A stretch of DNA of 64,000 nucleotides from Paludisphaera mucosa (GTDB lineage Bacteria > Planctomycetota > Planctomycetia > Isosphaerales > Isosphaeraceae), in NCBI RefSeq assembly GCF_029589435.1, contig NZ_JARRAG010000002.1:2542001-2606000 (forward strand). Reading direction: 5' to 3'. Positions 50,626 to 60,934 of the stretch are shown here, one piece after another (position 1 is the stretch's first letter; every line of letters begins with the position of its first letter). The translations under genes and the position numbers were made by a program. The notes under the pieces are model-generated. The model was not told the origin of the DNA. It worked only from the letters and a program-made list of their open reading frames with translations, and did not search any database.

Positions 50626-51449
50626 GCCGCAACATCCTCGAGCGGCCCCCTGAAAGGTCGAGCGTCGCCGCGAGGTTGAAAGGGGCGGGGTCGAGGCTGG
50701 GAAAGCTCCGGCCGTGCATCGTTGAAAGATGTCGATGTCTTGGTCTATTCGCGCACGCCTTCAGGGCGGTTTCGCCCTCTCTTCGACGCGCCGACGATCC
50801 GTCGACGTCTGCCTCCCGGCGGCTTCCAAACTTCTCGGCCTTGGTGGTTGCGGCTGAGTGCGTTCCGGACGGCCTCTCATGCCAAGGCCGTCCTGCATTC
50901 AAACGCTCGTCTAGCTCAGCAAGTTTGGTGGATTTTTTCCACAGCCTCCAGGTCGTCGATCCTCCGATTATGCTTCGCAACCTCGGAATCCGAGGGCGTC
51001 TCGATTTCGGACGTAAGACAGGTGCCATCCTCCTCGTCTTCGCGCAGCGCGTCCTAGGTGTCGTCGACCTCGACAGCCGGCCGACCGTCACGCCGGTCAG
51101 GCAGCCCGGCGAAATACCATCATCGAACGATCAGTTCGGCGAGGGTCAATCCCTGTGAAGGGACGGGGAGGCCCCGAGTGCGCCCCGCATGGGCCAGCCA
51201 TCCAACGACCAGTCGGTCGCACTGCGCTTTCCGTCTTGCGTGCCGTGAAGCCCGAGATCGCAGTCCGACCGTCGAGGCTGATGATGGCTTGCCCGCTGGC
51301 CTTGCACGGGCGATCCGAAGGGAACCGGCGCACGAGTCGGGGCTTGTTGGACGATCCCCTCGGTCGCACCAAGACGGTATCCCACCACCTCGCCTCCAGG
51401 TCTGGGACGCTCCGCTTACCGCGGTTTGCCCCGGGATGGCATACAGCCC
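50626..51449. other. intergenic, no supportable gene
   Basis: About 820 bases between the ABC-F gene and the IS chimera. Minus-strand reading near 51130-51330 contains a protein-like stretch (SGQAIISLDGRTAISGFTAR) that I cannot place; it may be an older mobile-element remnant. Nothing else found. Confidence 0.4.
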
Positions 51450-52001
51450 CGAGTGACGGAACCAGCCGGCTATACCGCTGGGCGTGACATGATCGAGGGC
51501 GTCGGCCACGGCCTGATGCAACGCCGGGGTCGTCCGCGCGGCGGCTCGCCGCAGACTCTCTTTGATCTTCGACCACATCTCCTCGATTGGGTTGTAGTCG
51601 GGGACCTTCGTCGAGTAGCCGCCGCGCGACCGGCCGAAGGCAAGCGCCTCGCCCCCCCCCTTTTTTCGCGCCGCCCCGGCGGCGTGCTGATGGGCTCGGA
51701 CGACCGTCGAGTCGATCATCAGCCGCCGGGCGTCCCAGCACTCGGCCCGCCCGGCCATCAGGTCGAACAGTCTCTTGAGCCGCCCCGAATGGATCCGGCG
51801 GCGGAGCCGGTTGGAGACCGCGTCCCGGGCGCCGAACTCCGCCGGCGGGTCGCGCCAGGGGATGCCGGTCCTGGCCCGGTAGAGGACGGCCTCGAAGAAT
51901 ATGCGGTCGGGCGGCTCCGGCTCCGGGCCCGGCTTCGAGCGGCAGCTATCCACCATCGGGCCGAGGACGGCCCGGATCTGGTCGGCGATCAGGTGTCGCA
52001 T
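51450..52001 (-). pseudogene. chimeric transposase remnant: IS5-type N-terminus joined to IS630-type C-terminus
   Basis: From the ATG at 52001 the frame reads as an IS5/IS427-type transposase start (RAVLGPMVDSC, RTGIPWRDPPAEFG, MIDSTVVRAHQHAAGA, GRSRGGYSTKV). At about 51607 it changes abruptly to an IS630 C-terminus (PDYNPIEEMWSKIKESLRRA, then ALDHVTPSGIAGWFRHSGLY). Neither half contains a full catalytic triad. The junction is in frame and suggests recombination between two elements. A run of nine C and six T sits within the IS5 part at 51652-51666. Confidence 0.8.
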
Positions 52002-52589
52002 GGCGGCGTCGGCCCCTCCCGGGTCGTGGTCCGCCGTAAATCCTCACCGGATCAACCTCCAGGCAGTCCACAAGCCCTAACATAGCGACGGGTGGCAACG
52101 ACGTGGGCGGGCTACACAGGGCCATGGCCTACCTGGTCTCGGGGCGTATGCCTCAATCAAGGGCCGTGCCGAACCACGCCTCATCGGGCCAGGAGCCCTC
52201 GTTCAGCCGGTCCGAATCCCCGGGTCAGGTTGGAGCGCAGAAGGTAGCCCAAACAAGTGCCCTTTTTTTTGTTGATCTCACCAGGATGTCGCGATACACT
52301 CCCAAACGCGAGGCGATATAAGCCAGACCGTTCTTAATCTGGCAGACAGAGAAGCCATCCTTTCTGGTTGCTTCACGTAGCAGATGACCGTCGGGGCGCT
52401 CGCCCATTACTCGTAAGCTCGGCGATGAACCGCAATCGGGCTGTCCGAGCGGAATATGCTTGGAGATCGTCTAGGTCGATCAATTCAGGCCCGAAGTCCA
52501 CGACCGGCCCACCGACGCTGACGCGAAGGCGTGGGTCAGGCTTGCGCTTTGCGCCACAATCGGGTGCCTGCCGAGGGAGAAGAACGGAC
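52002..52589. other. intergenic with a possible decayed minus-strand gene
   Basis: Two minus-strand frames look protein-like and may be one gene with an indel: VGGPVVDFGPELIDLDDLQA with ARLRFIAEL (about 52420-52600), followed by MGERPDGHLLREATRKDGFS and IASRLGVYRDILVRS (52225-52407). I recognise no family. A run of eight T lies at 52263. No other feature is seen. Confidence 0.35.
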
Positions 52590-53111
52590 ATGAAATCGAC
52601 GCGGCGGGCGGGCATGAGGATCAGAGCGGCCGGCCGCATCGTCGTACTCGCATCGGTTCTATCGACGATCCACGCGTCGCTGGGCTCCTATCCCCACCAG
52701 TTGGCCTATTTCAATCCGCTCCACGGAGGTTTGCACAGCGGGCATGAGCGTCTGCTGCACAGCAACGTCGACTGGAGGCAAGATTGGCTTCTCTGTCAAG
52801 CTTACCTGTTCGGCAGTCCAAGAATATTTCCACATAACTACTCGTACATTTATGTTGCTGAAGACGAGGCGGCCATACTTTGCGACGATTTCCGAGGCCT
52901 GGCTGATCTCCGCATGATGATCGCTTCCGTCCCACCCGCGACTCCGTTCGGGCTGTGCGTCGGCAGAACGGTCGCAAGCCAGGTTCTTCAGGGTATTCCG
53001 ACTCCGTCCTTGAGCAATAGTATCAGGGAGTGCATACGACGGGCGGAAAGATGCACCGCGATTACTCCGGCGGTCTTGCTATTCCACTGCCGTACCCCCA
53101 ACGCAAATTAG
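52590..53111 (+). CDS. C-terminal-domain-only relative of ArnT/PMT glycosyltransferases
   Basis: 173 residues. After a short basic start and one hydrophobic segment (IVVLASVLSTIHASLG) comes SYPHQLAYFNPLHGG, then HERLLHSNVDWRQDWLL, the element found right after the last helix in planctomycete PMT-family proteins (usually YPHSLSYFNELAGG and SNIDWGQDLL). The rest is a soluble domain with several Cys. The catalytic membrane part is absent, so it is either a truncated paralogue or a stand-alone extracytoplasmic domain. GGGAGAAG precedes the ATG. It is the first of a run of plus-strand exported proteins. Confidence 0.6.
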   Translation: MKSTRRAGMRIRAAGRIVVLASVLSTIHASLGSYPHQLAYFNPLHGGLHSGHERLLHSNVDWRQDWLLCQAYLFGSPRIFPHNYSYIYVAEDEAAILCDDFRGLADLRMMIASVPPATPFGLCVGRTVASQVLQGIPTPSLSNSIRECIRRAERCTAITPAVLLFHCRTPNAN

Positions 53112-53156
53112 ATGCAACTGTTCGCGTTCTCCCCCACAGCTTCAGGAGATCTTCAC

Positions 53157-54311
53157 GTGAAGCTCCAGCTCTCCTCGCTCTTGTCGTACGGGCTGATCGC
53201 CGCCTCGCTCGGAGTGATGGCCTGGACCACCTCCTCGCTCGGCATCCATGCTTCGACGGCGCAGAATCGAGGGGCGGAGGCCGGTGCGGATACGGTGCTA
53301 CTGCTCGGTGACAATCCGTACAAGATCTCGTTCGACCCGGTTCGAGTAGATCCGCCATGGGATCCAGCGGAGATGGAGAGATTCCTGGGATGGATCGCGG
53401 ACCCAATAGAGACCGACCCAAGAAACACTTCGCTCAGCCGCATGTCGCACGCGGCGCGACTGCTATCCCTGTCCGGTCGCGACCCTGCTTGGCTGAAGAG
53501 GGAACGAAAGACCTATGTGACGCGCGTGAAACTCCCGAAGCAATCGATCTGGCGCACTTGGCGGGGCCTCGAGGTGGCTGAGTCTGCCGAAGGAAAGCCA
53601 ACCGAGCACCGCGACCAGACGCTTGCCGCGCTCGCCGAATCCGGAGTTCCACTCAGCGCCGTGATCGAATCCGAGGATGGAGACTTTCACGTCTACGACC
53701 TCCTCCGGACCTCCTTGCATGAGTTCCATCTGGATCAAGAGGAGATATCCTGGACGGCGGCGGCCTACATCCGCTATCTCCCCCCCCAGACGACCTGGCA
53801 GAACCGTTACGGCGAACAATTTTCGTTGGACCACCTCGCTGAAGAGATGCTGCGGCGGCCGCTCCCTCGGGCGTCCTGCGCGGGGACCCACTTGGTCATG
53901 GTCCTGACTGAGTTCGCGAAAGTCGATCGGGGCCTCGGGATCTTAAGCTCGAACGTCCGAAGTCGGCTCGTCGCGTATCTTCGCAGCAAACTCTCTCAGG
54001 CGGTCGACTCTCAACTGGACGATGGGTCTTGGACGCATTGTTGGTCGCCTTCCGATCTCGTCGAAGGCCTCGACGTCTTCACGCCGGCAGATACCGACGT
54101 CAACCGGGTCACAGCGACGGGACATCTGCTCGAGTGGTTCCACCTCCTGCCCGAAGACCTGAAGCCGCCGGCCCGAACCGTCGAAAGCGGGACCGTCTGG
54201 ATCCGCTCGATTCTTCGCTCGACGCCCAAGGAAACCGTCGCGGAGGCGTTCTGCCCGTACACACATGCCATCGTGTCTCTCAACCTCGCCGCTCCCCCCC
54301 CGACGCGATAG
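53157..54311 (+). CDS. exported alpha-rich protein, unknown
   Basis: 384 residues from the GTG at 53157, which follows AGGAG by about eight bases. The N-terminus is a signal peptide or anchor (LLSYGLIAASLGVMAWTTSS). The mature part is helical with repeats of the kind seen in alpha/alpha-toroid proteins (SHAARLLSLSG, QLDDGSWTHCWSPSDLVEGL, NRVTATGHLLEWFHLLPEDL). The -DDGSW-H- and TGHxLEW pairs recall toroid folds, but no catalytic set is identified. It ends 53 bases before the Cys-rich peptide gene, so it probably belongs to the same operon. Confidence 0.7.
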   Translation: MKLQLSSLLSYGLIAASLGVMAWTTSSLGIHASTAQNRGAEAGADTVLLLGDNPYKISFDPVRVDPPWDPAEMERFLGWIADPIETDPRNTSLSRMSHAARLLSLSGRDPAWLKRERKTYVTRVKLPKQSIWRTWRGLEVAESAEGKPTEHRDQTLAALAESGVPLSAVIESEDGDFHVYDLLRTSLHEFHLDQEEISWTAAAYIRYLPPQTTWQNRYGEQFSLDHLAEEMLRRPLPRASCAGTHLVMVLTEFAKVDRGLGILSSNVRSRLVAYLRSKLSQAVDSQLDDGSWTHCWSPSDLVEGLDVFTPADTDVNRVTATGHLLEWFHLLPEDLKPPARTVESGTVWIRSILRSTPKETVAEAFCPYTHAIVSLNLAAPPPTR

Positions 54312-54364
54312 TGTGGCATGTGTGGGGGAAGGCGCACCTGCACCTGAGTGTCGTGGAGGATACC

Positions 54365-54631
54365 ATGAAGCTGTTGGCGACTCTCGGCGTCTCTTTGATC
54401 GTCGGCCTGGGCGCGATCTGTATGCAAGGCAGCAGACTGCCCGGCCGCGAGGTCAGCGCAAGCGAAGCTTCCCGAATCATCGGGGGCGCCTGTGGAAATT
54501 ACAAGGAAACCAGCTGCGGAGGCTGCACGGGCAACAAGCTCACGACTGGGTCCGCGCCGGGCGACCAGAACGATTCCGGTTGCTCAGGCAGCTGCGCTGG
54601 CAAGGGGGTCATCTCGGGCGTGTGCGGTTAA
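54365..54631 (+). CDS. exported Cys-rich peptide with double-glycine leader
   Basis: 88 residues. Residues 1-20 form a signal-peptide-like hydrophobic helix (LLATLGVSLIVGLGAI). Residues 30-41 read VSASEASRIIGG, a close match to the double-glycine leader ending that C39 peptidases cut. The predicted 47-residue product after Gly41 has six Cys (43, 51, 54, 73, 77, 87) and many Gly/Ser, so three disulfides or other modifications are possible. GGAGG lies six bases before the ATG at 54365. A strong hairpin follows the stop. The next gene encodes an exported tandem C39 peptidase. A processed secreted peptide is inferred; its activity is unknown. Confidence 0.75.
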   Translation: MKLLATLGVSLIVGLGAICMQGSRLPGREVSASEASRIIGGACGNYKETSCGGCTGNKLTTGSAPGDQNDSGCSGSCAGKGVISGVCG

Positions 54632-54651
54632 GAGTTGAGCCGATCCCTTCT

Positions 54652-54679
54652 CCGGGCCGCTCGGGAACGAGCGGCCCGG
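54652..54679 (+). terminator. strong hairpin after the peptide gene
   Basis: CCGGGCCGCTCG and CGAGCGGCCCGG form a perfect 12-bp stem with loop GGAA, 20 bases after the peptide stop. There is no T-run, so it may be an attenuator or mRNA-stabilising element that raises peptide expression over the downstream protease. Confidence 0.6.
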
Positions 54680-54878
54680 ACATTCGAAGCGTCATTCATT
54701 CCGTGTTCAAGGAATGCTCGATACGCCGACGGGTTCCACATATCGTCGCCACGTTCGACAGGACTCGATTCGAATTCTAGATGGACACCGAGGAGCTCAT
54801 AGCTCACGGAATAGCATGCGTTGTGGGTCGCCGTATCTCCGGCGTTTTGACATCGAGCCAAGGGAGGAGATGACCCAT

Positions 54879-56093
54879 ATGGCTGGACGGATCGAGGTCG
54901 AGGCGCCCGCAGGAAGCCGGTTCCCTAGGACGTCCGCGATGTGGATTCCTTTGGCCGCTTTCGCACTCCTGACCCCACTTCGAGCAGACGAGGTGACCCA
55001 GGCTTACGCCGAGGCGGAGCAGGTGAGCTGCGGACCTCGGACTGTATTCTCCTTGGCAAGAATGCTTGGATGCAATCTGGATTATGATGCGGTACGGGCG
55101 GAGTTTCGATTGGCGGAAAATGGATGTTCGGTACAAGATGTCAGGGGCGCGTTATTGAACTACGGAGTGGCATGCACAATCCGTCGCCTGGACCCCACCC
55201 AGCTTCTTTCGACGTCAACTCCGCTAATTGCACACATGAGGCCCCAGGGCACCGACGGCCATTTCATAATTGTAACTCGGATCGATAAAGAAGGCGTCGA
55301 GACCTTCGACCCGATGGTGAATCAAGACAAACATTGGAAATGGCGATCGTTTTCGGATTGGTGGAGCGGATACGTCGTCGTACCCGACCCTTCCCTGATC
55401 AATCGGGGGACAGGACCCATGATCCTTCTGCTTGGGATGCATCTCCTCGCGCTCGCGGTGCTGCTGATTTCGGTCATGAGATCCCTCTCGCCGTCGTCTC
55501 GGCCCGTCGGTTCAGGCCGTCGGGTGGCGATCAACATCCTGATCCTACTGGCTTTCGGGACCCTTGGGAGTCCCGTGACCGCGGCCGGGGCCGACGAGAC
55601 AATCCGTTCGAACGTGAATGACGGGAGAAATGCAGCCGGCCTCCTTGCAGGTTTATACGGCACGGATATCCTTTCGAACACGATCGTTCGTGACGAAGTC
55701 TGCAGTACGCTCGCCGAGGTCGCCTCGCTCCTCTCCAAGCACGGCATCAAGGCTCGCGCTCGGCAGGTCGATTACGAGGACTTGATGCACCGGACCGGAC
55801 CATGCATCGTTCCGCTCAGATTTGGCAGGACCGACGCGGCCACGCTTCATGTTTTGATCCAGGCGAACTCCGATGTGGTGACCACGGTTCACGCCGGACC
55901 GCTTCTTGTGTACACCTTTCCTGTCGATGAATTCCGGAGACGTTGGACCGGCCACGCGCTCATCCCGACAAGGCGTGTTCCTCGGACGGTCTACTGGGCG
56001 GGAGCCGGGGCACTGGCACTCCCGCCGGTCGCCTATGTGCTTGGCCGCAAGTTCATCGTTCGCTCGCGAGGAGCGTCGGGACAGGACGTCTGA
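54879..56093 (+). CDS. exported membrane-anchored tandem C39-like peptidase
   Basis: 404 residues from the ATG at 54879 (GGGAGGAG upstream; the ATG at 54870 touches the ribosome-binding site). A signal peptide ends near LRADEV (residue 38). The first C39 domain (about 40-170) has Cys51 in SCGPRTVFSLARMLG, His128 in GTDGHFIIVTRID and Asp144 in ETFDPM. Two membrane segments (about 180-200 and 216-236) flank a basic loop, which should be cytoplasmic. A second C39-like domain (about 245-365) keeps ATLHVLIQAN but lacks the CGP motif. A third membrane segment lies near the C-terminus. There is no ABC transporter domain. It probably processes the upstream double-glycine peptide outside the membrane. 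Confidence 0.78.
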   Translation: MAGRIEVEAPAGSRFPRTSAMWIPLAAFALLTPLRADEVTQAYAEAEQVSCGPRTVFSLARMLGCNLDYDAVRAEFRLAENGCSVQDVRGALLNYGVACTIRRLDPTQLLSTSTPLIAHMRPQGTDGHFIIVTRIDKEGVETFDPMVNQDKHWKWRSFSDWWSGYVVVPDPSLINRGTGPMILLLGMHLLALAVLLISVMRSLSPSSRPVGSGRRVAINILILLAFGTLGSPVTAAGADETIRSNVNDGRNAAGLLAGLYGTDILSNTIVRDEVCSTLAEVASLLSKHGIKARARQVDYEDLMHRTGPCIVPLRFGRTDAATLHVLIQANSDVVTTVHAGPLLVYTFPVDEFRRRWTGHALIPTRRVPRTVYWAGAGALALPPVAYVLGRKFIVRSRGASGQDV

Positions 56094-56425
56094 TCGGCCG
56101 ACCGAGGCTGGGGAAGCGGTAAACGCCATCCGGCGCAATCAAACACCCAAGAGACCTCAATGGCGATGGACCGTTACGACCACAACGGTTTCTCCACCTC
56201 GTATCCAGCGATTGTGCCGTGGGTCGCTCCCTCTATTTTAGCAGCCGACGCCGGCATAACTCGGTCCTTCAAGGCATGCTCCGGCACCCCGATCATTTCA
56301 AAGTCGGGCGAATCCTCCCGTCTTGCCATCGTCCTTGAGCGCCGCACGACCGCTTCGTTGACCGCCCGAGCGAGCGATTCGGCGATGTACTCATAACTCC
56401 TTTCGAACTGGCGAAGGAATTCGAG
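56094..56425. other. intergenic, with an antisense open frame
   Basis: About 330 bases. On the minus strand a frame ending at the TAA at 56174 is open back to about 56430 and reads protein-like (FLRQFERSYEYIAESLARAV, then DSPDFEMIGVPEHALKDRV). It has no proper start, so it is either a remnant or chance. No terminator is obvious. The plus-strand promoter or ribosome-binding site of the next gene (AAGGA) lies at the end. Confidence 0.35.
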
Positions 56426-57688
56426 ATGGTGCTTCTTTCATTGATCCTGGGGGCCCTCACGCTACAACCTTCCGGCACGCGAGACGGGATCGGCTCATCG
56501 ACGATCCCGGAGAGGATTCGGGCCGCTTTGGCAGCGGGGGCCGACAATAGCTTCTCCGACCTGGAGATCAAGGGATCGATGAACAGACGGATGCTCATGC
56601 CGTCTCGGAAAGTCCTCGAGACCCTGGGCACTCCCGAGTCCGAATCGGAGTTTACACAGCAGATCCGATTTGAATTGATGTTCAAGGGCGTCAGTTATCG
56701 AGAATCGTTGCGCTATCCGCCGGGCAAGTACCATTCGGGCGAGGACGTTCTGGAGACTTCCTTCGATGGGGCGAAATTCTTCGTGGGCCGGTTCGACCCC
56801 CAAAACAAGAGCAACCCCGGTTCTCTCATCGTGACCACTCCGGCGCTCAGCGAGGCTGAGAGCAAGCTGAATCGGACGGTCACGAGCTGGACGAGGAGCG
56901 ATCTGTGGTATCTGCTCGAAGCCGGCTTCGATGGCCCGACCCAGGGCACCACCATGGGACGGCCGGTCAGATCGCTCGTCCTAACCCGCGCCGCCGCCGG
57001 CAAGGTCGTGTCCGTGCGGCTCATGGGTCGGGAGTCCGAAGAACTGGTCGAGGTCGAGATCCAATATCCTGAGCCTTGGCAGAGCAGTGGGACCTATCCG
57101 ATCGAGACGGATCCGAGCTTCGATGATCTGCTGAATGGCACGGATAAGCTCCAGATGAGAAAGGAGCGACAACGTCGTCAGCTTGTAGGCGAAGAACGCC
57201 TGTGCCGATTCTTGCTCGACGGCAAGCTGGGCTTCGCGGTGCGGGAACGATGGGAATTCCGGAGGTCGAACGGCTTGTTGATGTTCCATTCGACGAGCTC
57301 CGATTTCGTTGAGCTCGAGCCGGGTGGTCCGTGGTTGCCGAAGCATTGCGACGTGAAATGCCATGCGGACCTTCTGGCCCCCCTTCATATCTCGTCGGAA
57401 CCTCTTTATGCAACGGTGATCGATGTCAGTGAGATCCGGAGGATACCGGCGGGTCGAGATGAGTTCAGCCTCTGGTATGGCGCCCCCGGGATGATGATCC
57501 AGGATTACACGCGACCGAACTCTTCCGTCTCCACCCCTCATCAGTACACCGTTACGTCCTCGTCTGAAGCTCTGGACAAGAGACTGGGCACGACCGGCTC
57601 GAAACAGGCACTAATCCTGCTCGCCAACGTTCTCATAATCTGCGGCATTGCATTGTATGCGTACGTCAAGTCGCGAAAGAAGCGCTGA
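56426..57688 (+). CDS. exported protein with C-terminal membrane anchor, unknown
   Basis: 420 residues. A short hydrophobic N-terminus (MVLLSLILGALTLQ) probably acts as a signal, and residues about 393-413 (ALILLANVLIICGIALYAYV) are followed by KSRKKR, giving an extracytoplasmic body with a basic cytoplasmic tail. The body has beta-strand-rich patterns with Trp/Phe (WEFRRSNGLLMFHSTSSDF, GGPWLPKHCDVKCHADLL). No family motif is known to me. AAGGA is eight bases before the ATG. The same architecture is seen in the next gene, 59 bases later, and both probably belong with the C39 cluster. Confidence 0.7.
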   Translation: MVLLSLILGALTLQPSGTRDGIGSSTIPERIRAALAAGADNSFSDLEIKGSMNRRMLMPSRKVLETLGTPESESEFTQQIRFELMFKGVSYRESLRYPPGKYHSGEDVLETSFDGAKFFVGRFDPQNKSNPGSLIVTTPALSEAESKLNRTVTSWTRSDLWYLLEAGFDGPTQGTTMGRPVRSLVLTRAAAGKVVSVRLMGRESEELVEVEIQYPEPWQSSGTYPIETDPSFDDLLNGTDKLQMRKERQRRQLVGEERLCRFLLDGKLGFAVRERWEFRRSNGLLMFHSTSSDFVELEPGGPWLPKHCDVKCHADLLAPLHISSEPLYATVIDVSEIRRIPAGRDEFSLWYGAPGMMIQDYTRPNSSVSTPHQYTVTSSSEALDKRLGTTGSKQALILLANVLIICGIALYAYVKSRKKR

Positions 57689-57747
57689 CGTCCCTCGAGG
57701 GTCGCGGCTGTTCGTTCGGAGTTGAGCCGCATTCGCGTCGAGCTTTC

Positions 57748-58953
57748 ATGGTACTCCTACGTTTGCGAGGCGGGCTGATGCCTTGGACCTTGATCTGGTC
57801 GTTCTGCGGCTTCGTCGGCCTCATCCCGCAAGCGGATTCCGCCTCCGCCCTCGCGGTGGGAGGCCGCCGACCGATGACGGCGGCCTCGCTGGCCCAAACG
57901 CTCATCGATCAGCATGATGACCTCTTCGCCTTGGCGTTGGTCTACCAAGAGGCGCCTGGCAGCCGACGCCCGGGCCGGCTGGAGGGCGCCTATCTACGAC
58001 GACGCTTGGCGGCGAGTCGACCCGGGTCGTTCATCCGGGACAACGCCCATGGTCACTCCAGGCTCAAATGGTCGGACGACCCGATTCGGAAGACGTTGCT
58101 CGTCACCCCGAACGAGTCCGTGATCCTAGAGCACCTGAATCGACTCCTCGTCGACTTCGAGAACACGCGATCGAATGGGGCCCTTTCGACGATCCAAGAG
58201 GAGATGATCTTCGAGGTCCTCTGTTGGTGGCCCTTCACGAGCTGGCCCGCTCCGAAGAACTTCGGTCGGCCCTTCGCGTTGAATCCTCTGTTCAAGGAAG
58301 GCGACCTCCGACTCCTCCCGCGGATCGAACGGATCCAGTCGCGGCCGTGCTACGTTCTCGACATCAAGGATGTCGTCACATTTTGGGTCGACTGCGAGCG
58401 CCCGCGGTGCATCCTCAGGAAAGACGTTTACAACCCGCGGACGAACTCGGTGGCGTCTCGTTACGAGATGGATGATCACCGAGAAGTGGGGGATGGCATC
58501 TGGATCCCCGGACGTTTCAGGAGCATGCAATTCGATTCGAACGCACAGTCGCCTCAGCTTCGGGAGAGGTTGGTCATCGACGCCGCGTTCCTGATCGACG
58601 ATGTGGAAGTCAACGACCACGTCCCTCCCGAGACCTTCCGACTGAACCTCGAGCCGGGGACGGTCCGCAGGGTCGTCTCATCGAACGCGGAGCGATTCGA
58701 TCCGGTCAGCGACGGGCAGGGTTTGCATTTGATCTCGATCTTGAATTGGTCCCGGGCGGTGGCAGCCGCCAAGAAGGCGGGGACCGATCCCGGCTTCGAG
58801 GGTCGCCTGCCCCTGATCCTATCCGTCGTCGCGGTCGGTGGAGTGACGGTCGCCCTCCTATTGGCGGCGCGCCCGTCCACCAGCCGAGCGGGGACCTTGA
58901 ATCCGACAACGTTAGGCGCGAATACGCTCAAGCAAGGATCTTGCCAACCATGA
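57748..58953 (+). CDS. exported protein with C-terminal anchor, LolA-like pattern
   Basis: 401 residues (or 391 from the ATG at 57778, which has a GAGG upstream). A signal peptide ends near PQADSASA. The last third has LIDDVEVNDHVPPETFRLNL then EPGTVRRV, the sort of ending seen in LolA/LppX-like half-barrel proteins of planctomycetes. A membrane segment (LPLILSVVAVGGVTVALLLA) lies near residue 360, with a hydrophilic tail. Cys residues in SRPCYVLDI and VDCERPRCIL could form disulfides. It has the same layout as the preceding gene. The function is unknown. Confidence 0.7.
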   Translation: MVLLRLRGGLMPWTLIWSFCGFVGLIPQADSASALAVGGRRPMTAASLAQTLIDQHDDLFALALVYQEAPGSRRPGRLEGAYLRRRLAASRPGSFIRDNAHGHSRLKWSDDPIRKTLLVTPNESVILEHLNRLLVDFENTRSNGALSTIQEEMIFEVLCWWPFTSWPAPKNFGRPFALNPLFKEGDLRLLPRIERIQSRPCYVLDIKDVVTFWVDCERPRCILRKDVYNPRTNSVASRYEMDDHREVGDGIWIPGRFRSMQFDSNAQSPQLRERLVIDAAFLIDDVEVNDHVPPETFRLNLEPGTVRRVVSSNAERFDPVSDGQGLHLISILNWSRAVAAAKKAGTDPGFEGRLPLILSVVAVGGVTVALLLAARPSTSRAGTLNPTTLGANTLKQGSCQP

Positions 58954-59482: not shown

Positions 59483-60934
59483 ATGACTCCGACTCCAGCG
59501 CCGGCGATTTCTCGCGAGTCTCCGCGAGTCCGTGCGGATGGGGCTCGCGTGGTCGCGGCCGTCGCCCTCCTCCTCGCCGCCCACGGGCTCCTGGTGGGAT
59601 ACTCCGCCACGTTGCACAGCCCGACCTACAACGAGCCTGGACACCTGGTCGCGGGGCTGACGCAGTGGACGTTCGGCCGGTTCGAGGTCTACCGCGTCAA
59701 CCCCCCCCTGGTGCACTACGCCGCGGCGCTGCCGGTCATGCTCGCCGGGCATCGCGAGGTTTGGGACCAATTCTACGAGGCGCCCGGGGCGCGACCTGAA
59801 TTACCGATGGGCTATGCCTTCCTCAGGGCCAACGGACCGCGTTCCGCATGGCTGATCACCCTCAGCCGTTGGGGTTGCCTCCCCTTCACCTTAATCGGCG
59901 GCCTGATCTGCTTCGTCTGGTCGCGGGACCTCTGGGGCGGTCCTTCAGCTGGGTTGGTCTCCCTGACGCTCTGGTGCTTCGAGCCGTTCCTCATGGGCCA
60001 CGCGGAGCTGATCACGAACGATTGTGCTGCGACATCGCTCGGCCTCGGGGCCGGCTATTTCTTGTGGCGCTGGTTGCGGAACTCGACCTGGTGGCGAGCC
60101 GCGGCCGCCGGGGCCGCACTCGGTCTGGCGCTGCTGAGCAAGTCGACGTGGCTCGTCCTCCTAGTCCTCTGGCCGGTGCTCTGGCTGGTCTGGACGGAAG
60201 CCGGTCGCCGCCTGACCCGCGGGGCGGGCCGGACGAGATCGCCCGCTCCTTGCGCGGCTCAGTTCGCCGCTCTGCTCATCCTCGCCGTGTACGTCCTGAA
60301 TCTCGGGTATCTTTTCGATGGTACCTTGACGAGGCTCGGCGATTATTCCTTCACGAGTCGAGCTCTCGCCGGCCCGGGGAAACCGGGTCATATTGGAAAC
60401 CGTTTCCGTGGAACGTGGTTCGAGAATGTTCCGGTCCCATTGCCGCATTCCTACGTCATCGGCATCGATATCCAAAAGAAGGACTTCGAAACGTTGAGCG
60501 AGCCGTCGTTCCTGCTCGGTGAATGGAAGTCCGGTGGATGGTGGTACTACTATCTTTATGGGCTTCTCGCGAAGACCAGCGTCGGTCTGCAAGTCCTGGT
60601 CTTATTCGGAATCCTCTCGATCATCTGTCGGGAGCGAAGGAACGGGGATGTCGGCCGCTCGTTGGAGCGCCCCAGCGGTGACGTTGCATCCCCACGGCAT
60701 CGGCCGCGGGCTGGCTTCTGGATCGGGGGCGCGGGCTTTCTCGACCTCGCGGTCCTCGCCGCTCACGGGGCGATCGTCCTCGTCCTCGTCAGCTCACAGA
60801 CGCAGTTCAACCATCATGTTCGCTATGCCCTTCCGGTGCTGGGATTTGCCATGGTCTTCGCAGGCGCGTCGGCCTGGCCATTCGAGTCGGATGAGGGGAT
60901 GAGTCGGGGGCCTGGAACCGTCGGCGCGGGGTGA
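59483..60934 (+). CDS. membrane glycosyltransferase, PMT/ArnT-like, short C-terminus
   Basis: 483 residues with about nine membrane segments. The first luminal loop carries the GT-C acidic motif in HSPTYNEPGHLVAGL, followed by YRVNPPLVHYAAALPV. Later come LALLSKSTWLVLLVLWPVLW and GGWWYYYLYGLLAKT, typical of planctomycete PMT-family proteins. Such enzymes move a sugar from a polyprenyl phosphate to an acceptor outside the membrane. The protein ends soon after FNHHVRYALPVLGFAMVFAG and lacks the usual YPHSLSYFNE domain, which instead appears by itself at 52590-53111. It heads a run of sugar-transfer genes. Confidence 0.82.
   Translation: MTPTPAPAISRESPRVRADGARVVAAVALLLAAHGLLVGYSATLHSPTYNEPGHLVAGLTQWTFGRFEVYRVNPPLVHYAAALPVMLAGHREVWDQFYEAPGARPELPMGYAFLRANGPRSAWLITLSRWGCLPFTLIGGLICFVWSRDLWGGPSAGLVSLTLWCFEPFLMGHAELITNDCAATSLGLGAGYFLWRWLRNSTWWRAAAAGAALGLALLSKSTWLVLLVLWPVLWLVWTEAGRRLTRGAGRTRSPAPCAAQFAALLILAVYVLNLGYLFDGTLTRLGDYSFTSRALAGPGKPGHIGNRFRGTWFENVPVPLPHSYVIGIDIQKKDFETLSEPSFLLGEWKSGGWWYYYLYGLLAKTSVGLQVLVLFGILSIICRERRNGDVGRSLERPSGDVASPRHRPRAGFWIGGAGFLDLAVLAAHGAIVLVLVSSQTQFNHHVRYALPVLGFAMVFAGASAWPFESDEGMSRGPGTVGAG

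What the first reader, a model, noticed from the sequence alone, without database searches (positions are those of the whole stretch)
54365..56093. Sec-exported double-glycine Cys-rich peptide beside an exported, non-ABC tandem C39 protease
Seen: an 88-residue protein with a hydrophobic signal-like start, then VSASEASRIIGG and a six-Cys, Gly-rich 47-residue tail. 250 bases later lies a C39-type peptidase with a signal peptide, Cys51/His128/Asp144 and membrane anchors. Known: double-glycine leaders are normally cut by C39 domains on the cytosolic side of ABC exporters. Inference: here both partners seem to be exported separately, so cleavage would occur outside the membrane, an unusual maturation route. 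The flanking exported proteins may be dedicated partners.
Basis: partly seen in the sequence, partly recalled or inferred. Interest (0 to 1): 0.85.

Follow-up and report, generated by a model that had tools for sequence, protein, structure and literature searches.

The report
Outward-facing double-glycine peptide-cutting gene cassette
A planctomycete genome carries a small gene set in which a cysteine-rich peptide and the enzyme expected to cut it free both appear to be sent out of the cell separately, whereas this type of enzyme normally works on the inside; the same set recurs in related bacteria, which points to a little-described way of finishing secreted peptides.

Summary
Window 54365-54631 encodes an 88-aa exported-type peptide with a textbook C39 leader (V-12, A-7, I-4, G-2, G-1) and a 47-aa, 6-Cys core. 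A peptide profile over 397 genomes of the class gave 24 matches, each within about 2.3 kb of a C39-type gene (three beside weak or partial ones); 7 of the 24 were not in the profile. Motif-bearing, Cys-rich, signal-bearing ORFs: 45 in 40 of 81 C39 loci, all on the C39 strand; 0 in 39 controls. Charges around the membrane span predict the C39 domain outside. LolA-like anchored proteins adjoin 59 of 81 loci. In six of six paired cases one C39 domain is active, one degenerate. Best reading: Sec exports the peptide and the outward-facing C39 then removes its double-glycine leader. Cleavage, topology and the product's role are untested. FapD is the one exported-C39 precedent I found. New variant of a known kind.

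The parts
53112..54311 (+). P3: exported-type protein with N-terminal hydrophobic span; invariant H, CxGxH, TGH, SHA residues and a QxxDGSW (QW-like) stretch; possibly an alpha/alpha toroid
   Evidence: weak profile match to squalene-hopene cyclase over 29 positions (E 0.0023); model pLDDT 58.6, Foldseek not significant
54355..54359 (+). GGAGG ribosome-binding site of the peptide gene
   Evidence: read
54365..54631 (+). 88-aa precursor peptide (signal-like start, double-glycine leader, Cys-rich core)
54452..54487 (+). leader positions -12 to -1: V S A S E A S R I I G G
   Evidence: position rule from PMC6363468, passages
54488..54628 (+). predicted mature product, 47 aa, 6 Cys, 12 Gly, net charge 0
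54879..56093 (+). membrane-anchored C39 protein of exported type, two C39 domains (start 54879 or 54870)
   Evidence: PF03412 E 1.1e-18
55029..55310 (+). domain 1 catalytic triad: Cys 55029-55031, His 55260-55262, Asp 55308-55310
55620..55622 (+). domain 2: Asp codon at the position of the catalytic Cys (degenerate domain)
56426..57688 (+). P4: C-terminally anchored paralogue of P5
57748..58953 (+). P5: C-terminally anchored LolA-like protein

Best explanation
This is a peptide-maturation cassette that works outside the cytoplasmic membrane. The peptide is exported by Sec as a prepropeptide. Its hydrophobic N-terminus is removed, or stays as an anchor. The leader then docks as a short helix (V-12, A-7, I-4) in the groove of the active C39 domain, which is held on the outer face of the membrane, and C39 cuts after G-2 G-1 to release a disulfide-rich product into the periplasm or medium. 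The degenerate second C39 domain (or separate degenerate partner) binds or hands over the substrate without cutting it. The LolA-like P4/P5 proteins hold or carry precursor or product. Shown by sequence and comparison: leader, triad, co-occurrence, strand and operon order, active plus degenerate pairing, C39-P5 fusions. Predicted: membrane anchors and outward topology. Inferred: Sec export, cleavage, roles of the degenerate domain and of P3-P5, nature of the product.
For: The leader has hydrophobic residues at -12, -7, -4 and GG, as LahT150 needs (PMC6363468 passages). Among 46 leaders picked by score in 41 loci, -12 is V/L/I/A in 45, -7 A/L in 37, -4 V/I/L/F in 45 (partly so by selection); a fixed matrix scored 18 of 47 held-out peptides at 6 or more against a shuffle mean of 1.15, maximum 5. 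Co-occurrence: 45 ORFs in 40 of 81 loci, all same strand; 0 in 39 controls; 24 of 24 matches near a C39-type gene, 7 of them not in the profile. Topology. None of 83 C39 ORFs has an ABC signature or Walker A motif and Pfam finds no ABC part in 10 tested. The active exported-type C39s group together (72 rows, SH-aLRT 93). One PF03412 gene in the 8.2-Mb own genome at E 0.001, so no ABC-type C39 is seen there. Even Cys number in 42 of 46 cores, as expected of disulfide-bonded exported proteins. C39 and P5 fused in L114, L184, L280, L281.
Against: No cleavage or export was measured. No SignalP or DeepTMHMM was available; my scan called an N-terminal span in 55 of 73 C39 ORFs and missed the window's own. 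In 41 of 81 loci the strict scan found no peptide: of 24 such loci with P5, 9 have under 500 bases upstream, others show weaker candidates, and L110, L131, L148, L154, L156, L169 show none that convinced me. The leader matrix was built partly on the loci it scores, and the profile lost one of its own 18 rows (L117) in the genome search. The C39 beside three of the 24 matches is weak (L194, 20.0 bits, under Pfam's cut-off) or only its second half is in frame (L281, two matches). FapD shows that an exported C39 can serve a system without canonical leaders.
Confidence: 0.72

Rival explanations
1. Signal-anchor release: the hydrophobic N-terminus is never cut by signal peptidase; it tethers the folded peptide outside and C39 is the only releasing protease (a sheddase). 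Same partners, different first step.
For: The distance from hydrophobic segment to GG is tight (median 23 aa, quartiles 21-27, range 9-47), which suits a tethered substrate and a membrane-anchored protease; several peptides show no obvious AxA site by eye.
Against: Some have a plausible AxA site just before the leader (L105, L106, by eye); no signal-peptide predictor was run.
Confidence: 0.3
2. The C39 protein serves another substrate (P3, P4, P5 or an outer-membrane part), as suspected for FapD, and the double-glycine-like stretch is not its target.
For: FapD is exported, needs its Cys, and its target was unresolved (PMC5557850 passages); P5 adjoins more of the loci (59 of 81) than the strictly scored peptide (40 of 81).
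Against: Leader positions fit known C39 recognition; 24 of 24 peptide matches lie by a C39-type gene.
Confidence: 0.12
3. The C39 domains face the cytoplasm, or an ABC-type C39 elsewhere processes the peptide before export as in class II bacteriocins.
For: The leader-cutting C39 domains described in the review passages I saw are parts of ABC exporters (PMC10885120); that they act on the cytosolic side is also what PMC5557850 says.
Against: A membrane span plus positive tail behind the domain in 60 of 63; no other PF03412 gene in the own genome at E 0.001; the peptide has its own export-type start.
Confidence: 0.05
4. The two-domain C39 protein is mainly a chaperone or tether and cutting is secondary, as suggested for transporters with an inactive C39-like domain.
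For: A degenerate domain is present in six of six paired cases, with Asp at the Cys position in five of six.
Against: The other domain keeps Cys, His and Asp in all six pairs; single-domain loci mostly keep the triad as well.
Confidence: 0.1

Closest known systems
PCAT/AMS ABC exporters with N-terminal C39 domain (LahT, ComA, PCAT1)
   Same: C39 fold and triad; best solved relatives are LahT150 6mpz (E 1.1e-18), PCAT1 and ComA; double-glycine leader with hydrophobic -4, -7, -12
   Different: no ABC part; predicted outside and membrane-anchored; substrate carries its own export-type N-terminus; separate group in the tree
FapD, periplasmic C39 of the Pseudomonas functional amyloid system
   Same: C39 with Sec signal and without ABC; Cys needed for function (PMC5557850 passages)
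   Different: 19.6 bits against a cut-off of 330 for NF058616; its paper reports no canonical leader in Fap proteins; tandem, anchored C39 with LolA-like and P3 neighbours here
Class II (double-glycine) bacteriocins and microcins
   Same: small precursor, leader of the same pattern, small product
   Different: those are exported by ABC transporters without a Sec signal (recalled); no immunity gene recognised here; activity unknown
LolA/LolB superfamily (for P4/P5)
   Same: weak profile match to an outer-membrane lipoprotein-sorting protein (9tp6, E 0.052), PF17131 in 1 of 15 rows (E 0.085), top Foldseek hits 3bk5 and 3buu (E 0.011, 0.033)
   Different: none of these is significant alone; model pLDDT 41; C-terminal membrane span

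Membership tests
C39 peptidase family (PF03412) | profile score over the curated cut-off | tested here: met
   67.8 bits against cut-off 22
C39 peptidase family (PF03412) | Cys/His/Asp triad | tested here: met
   domain 1 met; domain 2 not (Asp for Cys, no His)
PCAT/AMS exporter | C39 fused to transporter and ABC domains | tested here: not met
   Pfam finds only Peptidase_C39 in the window ORF; 0 of 83 C39 ORFs with ABC signature or Walker A
Double-glycine leader peptide | GG/GA/GS at -2,-1 and hydrophobic -4, -7, -12 | tested here: met
   sequence; rule from PMC6363468, passages
Double-glycine leader peptide | cleavage after the motif by C39 | not testable with these tools
   needs enzyme assay or mass spectrometry
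FapD (NF058616) | equivalog score cut-off | tested here: not met
   19.6 bits, cut-off 330
FapD-like exported C39 (works like) | export and activity outside the cytoplasm | tested here: inconclusive
   charge-based topology prediction only
Class II bacteriocin | antimicrobial activity with immunity | not testable with these tools
   no activity data
LolA superfamily (P4/P5) | significant profile or fold match | tested here: inconclusive
   weak and concordant, none below E 0.01
alpha/alpha toroid, cyclase-like (P3) | significant profile or fold match | tested here: inconclusive
   8paj E 0.0023 over 29 positions only; Foldseek best E 0.057, none at 0.001

The most novel reading that the evidence does not exclude
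A dedicated extracytoplasmic secretion-and-maturation system of Planctomycetia: Sec delivers double-glycine precursors, an outward-facing active/degenerate C39 pair removes the leader, and a LolA-like anchored partner passes the disulfide-rich product on to the outer membrane or cell surface, with many parallel peptide-protease sets in some genomes.
Probability: 0.45. Interest if true: 0.85.

Novelty: new variant of a known kind. Interest (0 to 1): 0.72.

Why it matters
Double-glycine cutting is taken as a cytosolic step tied to ABC export. Here the same recognition code seems to have been moved outside and uncoupled from transport, in several families of one bacterial class and with up to eleven C39 loci in one genome (G441). 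It predicts mature N-termini for dozens of unstudied Cys-rich proteins, offers candidate leader-specific proteases that work outside cells, and gives FapD-type exported C39s, whose substrate was unresolved, a system in which the likely substrate is visible.

Tried and rejected
Rejected: ABC-linked export (no ABC part; one C39 gene in the genome). Rejected: membership in FapD. Rejected: chance ORF (homologue by a homologous C39 in another family). Considered and not settled: signal-anchor release. Led nowhere: Pfam on 17 P3 and 15 P5 proteins gave only weak, scattered matches at E up to 0.1; P5 model poor (pLDDT 41); P3 fold search not significant; plasmid records held no match to the C39 protein or P5; the genome-contig scan found one locus. 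The first search with the peptide alone at E up to 1 was nearly all noise; its one useful row lay beside the C39 of G046, and its best non-self row (G050, E 3.6e-5) lies among longer overlapping frames with no peptide, C39, P3 or P5 profile match in the 3.2-kb locus.

Rows dropped: 80 C39 loci were taken by hand. Of the 75 rows, 59 rows were taken (in 57 stretches), 2 rows were the window, and 14 were left out (frames of about 1,000-1,950 aa, a fragment and some weak ones). From I took 23 stretches in frames up to 692 aa; the other listed rows, many in frames over 700 aa but also shorter ones, were left out, and that list was itself capped. One of 40 controls (L194) was dropped because it held a weak C39 and a genuine-looking peptide. 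L157, L169, L173, L175 and L194 were left out of the tree. The topology count left out L176-L184 and L194.

Full report
What is there. Five genes at 53112-58953 lie on the + strand: P3 (399 aa), the 88-aa peptide, the C39 protein, P4 (420 aa) and P5 (401 aa). The peptide reads hydrophobic start, then RLPGRE-VSASEASRIIGG and a 47-aa core with 6 Cys. Counting back from the cut site gives V-12, S-11, E-8, A-7, I-4, G-2, G-1. The LahT150 study describes hydrophobic residues at -4, -7 and -12 as the recognition knobs and Gly-Gly, Gly-Ala or Gly-Ser as the cut motif (PMC6363468, passages); each is met. In the C39 protein Pfam finds Peptidase_C39 (67.8 bits, cut-off 22) and nothing else at E up to 1. 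Domain 1 has the Cys/His/Asp triad; domain 2 has Asp for Cys and no His.

Where it lies. The window is G000:C2:2542001-2606000, in an 8.2-Mb genome rated 100% complete. The genome holds one PF03412 gene at E 0.001. None of 5 same-genus genomes has a match to the C39 protein at E 0.001. The closest cassette that I saw is in a genome of another family (L163 from G346: P3 44%; P5 40%; C39 37% over 370 aa; peptide 57% over 35 aa); the aligned family members are more distant (P3 20-30%, P5 up to 25%). This patchiness suggests horizontal movement (inference).

Survey. With a profile of 17 C39 domains (A1), 26 of 45 genomes of the family and 107 of 392 of the phylum have matches at 1e-5 (the latter include ABC-type proteins). 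G441 has 11 matches at separate places. I took 80 stretches around C39 genes in mostly short frames and 40 control stretches of 19-20 kb. None of the 83 C39 ORFs in these and the window has an ABC signature or Walker A motif. Iterated profiles found P5-type proteins in 59 of 81 C39 loci (window included) and P3-type in 17 of 81. Among controls P3 had one marginal match (L197, E 3e-4) and P5 two (L224, E 2e-12, and L194, which proved to be a cassette). Three layouts recur: P3-peptide-C39-C39-P5-P5 (window, L118, L162, L163; L110 has the genes but no peptide that I found; in L114 C39 is fused to P5); peptide-C39-P3-P5 (for example L105, L108, L109, L112); and P5-C39 without P3 (41 loci), in many of which a Cys-rich exported ORF lies upstream of P5.

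Peptide count. A scan for short ORFs with a hydrophobic start, at least 5 Cys and a leader score of at least 8 gave 45 ORFs in 40 of 81 C39 loci, all 45 on the C39 strand; the same scan gave 0 in 39 control loci of 779 kb. A looser count without the motif gave 56 of 82 loci with a same-strand exported Cys-rich ORF, against 23 ORFs on both strands in the 39 controls. The matrix was partly trained on these loci; a fixed matrix on held-out peptides scored 18 of 47 at 6 or more, against a shuffle mean of 1.15 and maximum of 5. Of 59 loci with P5, 24 had no peptide in the strict scan; 9 of these have under 500 bases upstream, others show weaker candidates by eye (L107 ISKDLYGG, L111 VSAGLYGG, L149 truncated), and L110, L131, L148, L154, L156 and L169 show none that convinced me.

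Wider test. A profile of 18 peptides (A7) run over 397 genomes of the class gave 24 matches in 15 genomes at 0.001 (11 candidates per genome were scored). Seventeen of them, in 9 of the 12 genomes searched first, lie 60-2,289 bases from a C39. G027 is profile row L159. The other 6 are at loci not used before, in 5 genomes (four new to the survey, plus G012). Their loci read P3-PEP-P5-[C39+P5] (L280), P3-PEP-P5-[C39+P5]-PEP-P5 on the strand of the genes (L281), P3-PEP-C39-C39-P5-P5-P5 (L282), PEP-C39 (L283) and PEP-C39-P3-P5 (L284). So 24 of 24 lie by a C39-type gene; 17 are rows of the profile itself, 7 are not. Weak points: the C39 of L194 scores 20.0 bits, under Pfam's 22; of L281's C39 only the second half is in the frame, so its Cys was not seen; the profile missed its own row L117. 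No orphan was found at this threshold.

Leader and core. In 46 leaders from 41 loci: -12 V/L/I/A 45, -8 E 21, -7 A or L 37, -4 V/I/L/F 45, -1 A 18, G 16, L 5 (G at -2 was required and the rest is partly enriched by selection). The distance from the hydrophobic segment to the cut has median 23 aa (quartiles 21-27), 42 of 46 cores have an even number of Cys, and cores span 47-159 aa.

C39 family. In a quick tree, 66 rows of the exported type, 5 degenerate ones and L184 form one group of 72 rows (SH-aLRT 93) apart from the ABC-type rows and from the C39s of L176-L183; the second domains of the window and L163 fall elsewhere on a long branch, and half of the inner forks are weak. In six of six paired cases (window, L110, L118, L162, L163, L282) one domain keeps the triad and the other has lost the Cys; in five of six the Cys position is Asp. 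A C-terminal membrane span was called in 63 of 73 C39 ORFs, and the 15 residues behind it are net positive in 60 and net negative in none. An N-terminal span was called in 55 of 73, not in the window's ORF, although MWIPLAAFALLTPL is evident by eye. A span between domain and positive tail puts the domain outside (positive-inside rule, recalled). Four longer C39 proteins (L134, L159, L174, L283) carry a DUF1573 match behind the C39 domain (L134 just under the cut-off).

Partners. P5 shows three weak but concordant LolA hints. P3 shows a QW-like stretch and a mostly helical low-confidence model. P3 relatives occur in 273 of 397 class genomes, so P3 is not specific to the cassette. C39 and P5 are fused in L114, L184, L280 and L281, which ties these two together.

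Known and new. FapD has a Sec signal, its Cys is needed for amyloid secretion, and its target was unresolved in 2017 (PMC5557850, passages). The RiPP-protease review speaks of C39 as part of PCATs in the passages I saw (PMC10885120). Searches of the open library (listings and abstract starts, empty) showed no title on exported C39 with double-glycine peptides in planctomycetes; subscription papers are mostly not covered.

Verdict. Missing are biochemical proof of the cut, proof of topology, and the role of the product. I lean to a secreted or surface-held disulfide-rich effector or structural peptide, without evidence between these.

Noticed in passing
window 59483-60934 and 52560-53111: A PMT-like (mannosyltransferase-type) protein downstream looks short at its C-terminus beside the 590-aa relative in L225, while a piece that matches the later part of such proteins lies directly upstream of P3. 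PMT-like ORFs also lie in 6 of 80 C39 loci and 0 of 40 controls.
   Followed up: partly
window 51120-52001 (-): IS4/5-type transposase ORF (DUF4096, E 1.2e-13) near the cassette.
   Followed up: no
L176, L177, L178: In three genomes of family f5 a different conserved exported-type protein with MSDEEGKNVRG followed by a Gly-rich, Cys-free tail lies on the opposite strand beside a C39 that falls outside the main group: perhaps another substrate class.
   Followed up: no
L170, L171: Three and two paralogous 6-Cys exported-type peptides (SAE.V.A.S.KG[GA]) downstream of a C39 protein with two further hydrophobic spans.
   Followed up: no
L134, L159, L174, L283: C39 domain followed by a DUF1573 match in one protein.
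   Followed up: no
G002, G009, G024, G028, G437, G440: C39 domains inside open frames of about 1,790-1,950 aa in the same family, left out here; architecture unknown.
   Followed up: no
L111, L113: Single C39 genes with Arg or Ser at the place of the catalytic Cys; L111 lies in a P3/P5 cassette of a genome (G032) that also has an active near-copy, L107.
   Followed up: partly
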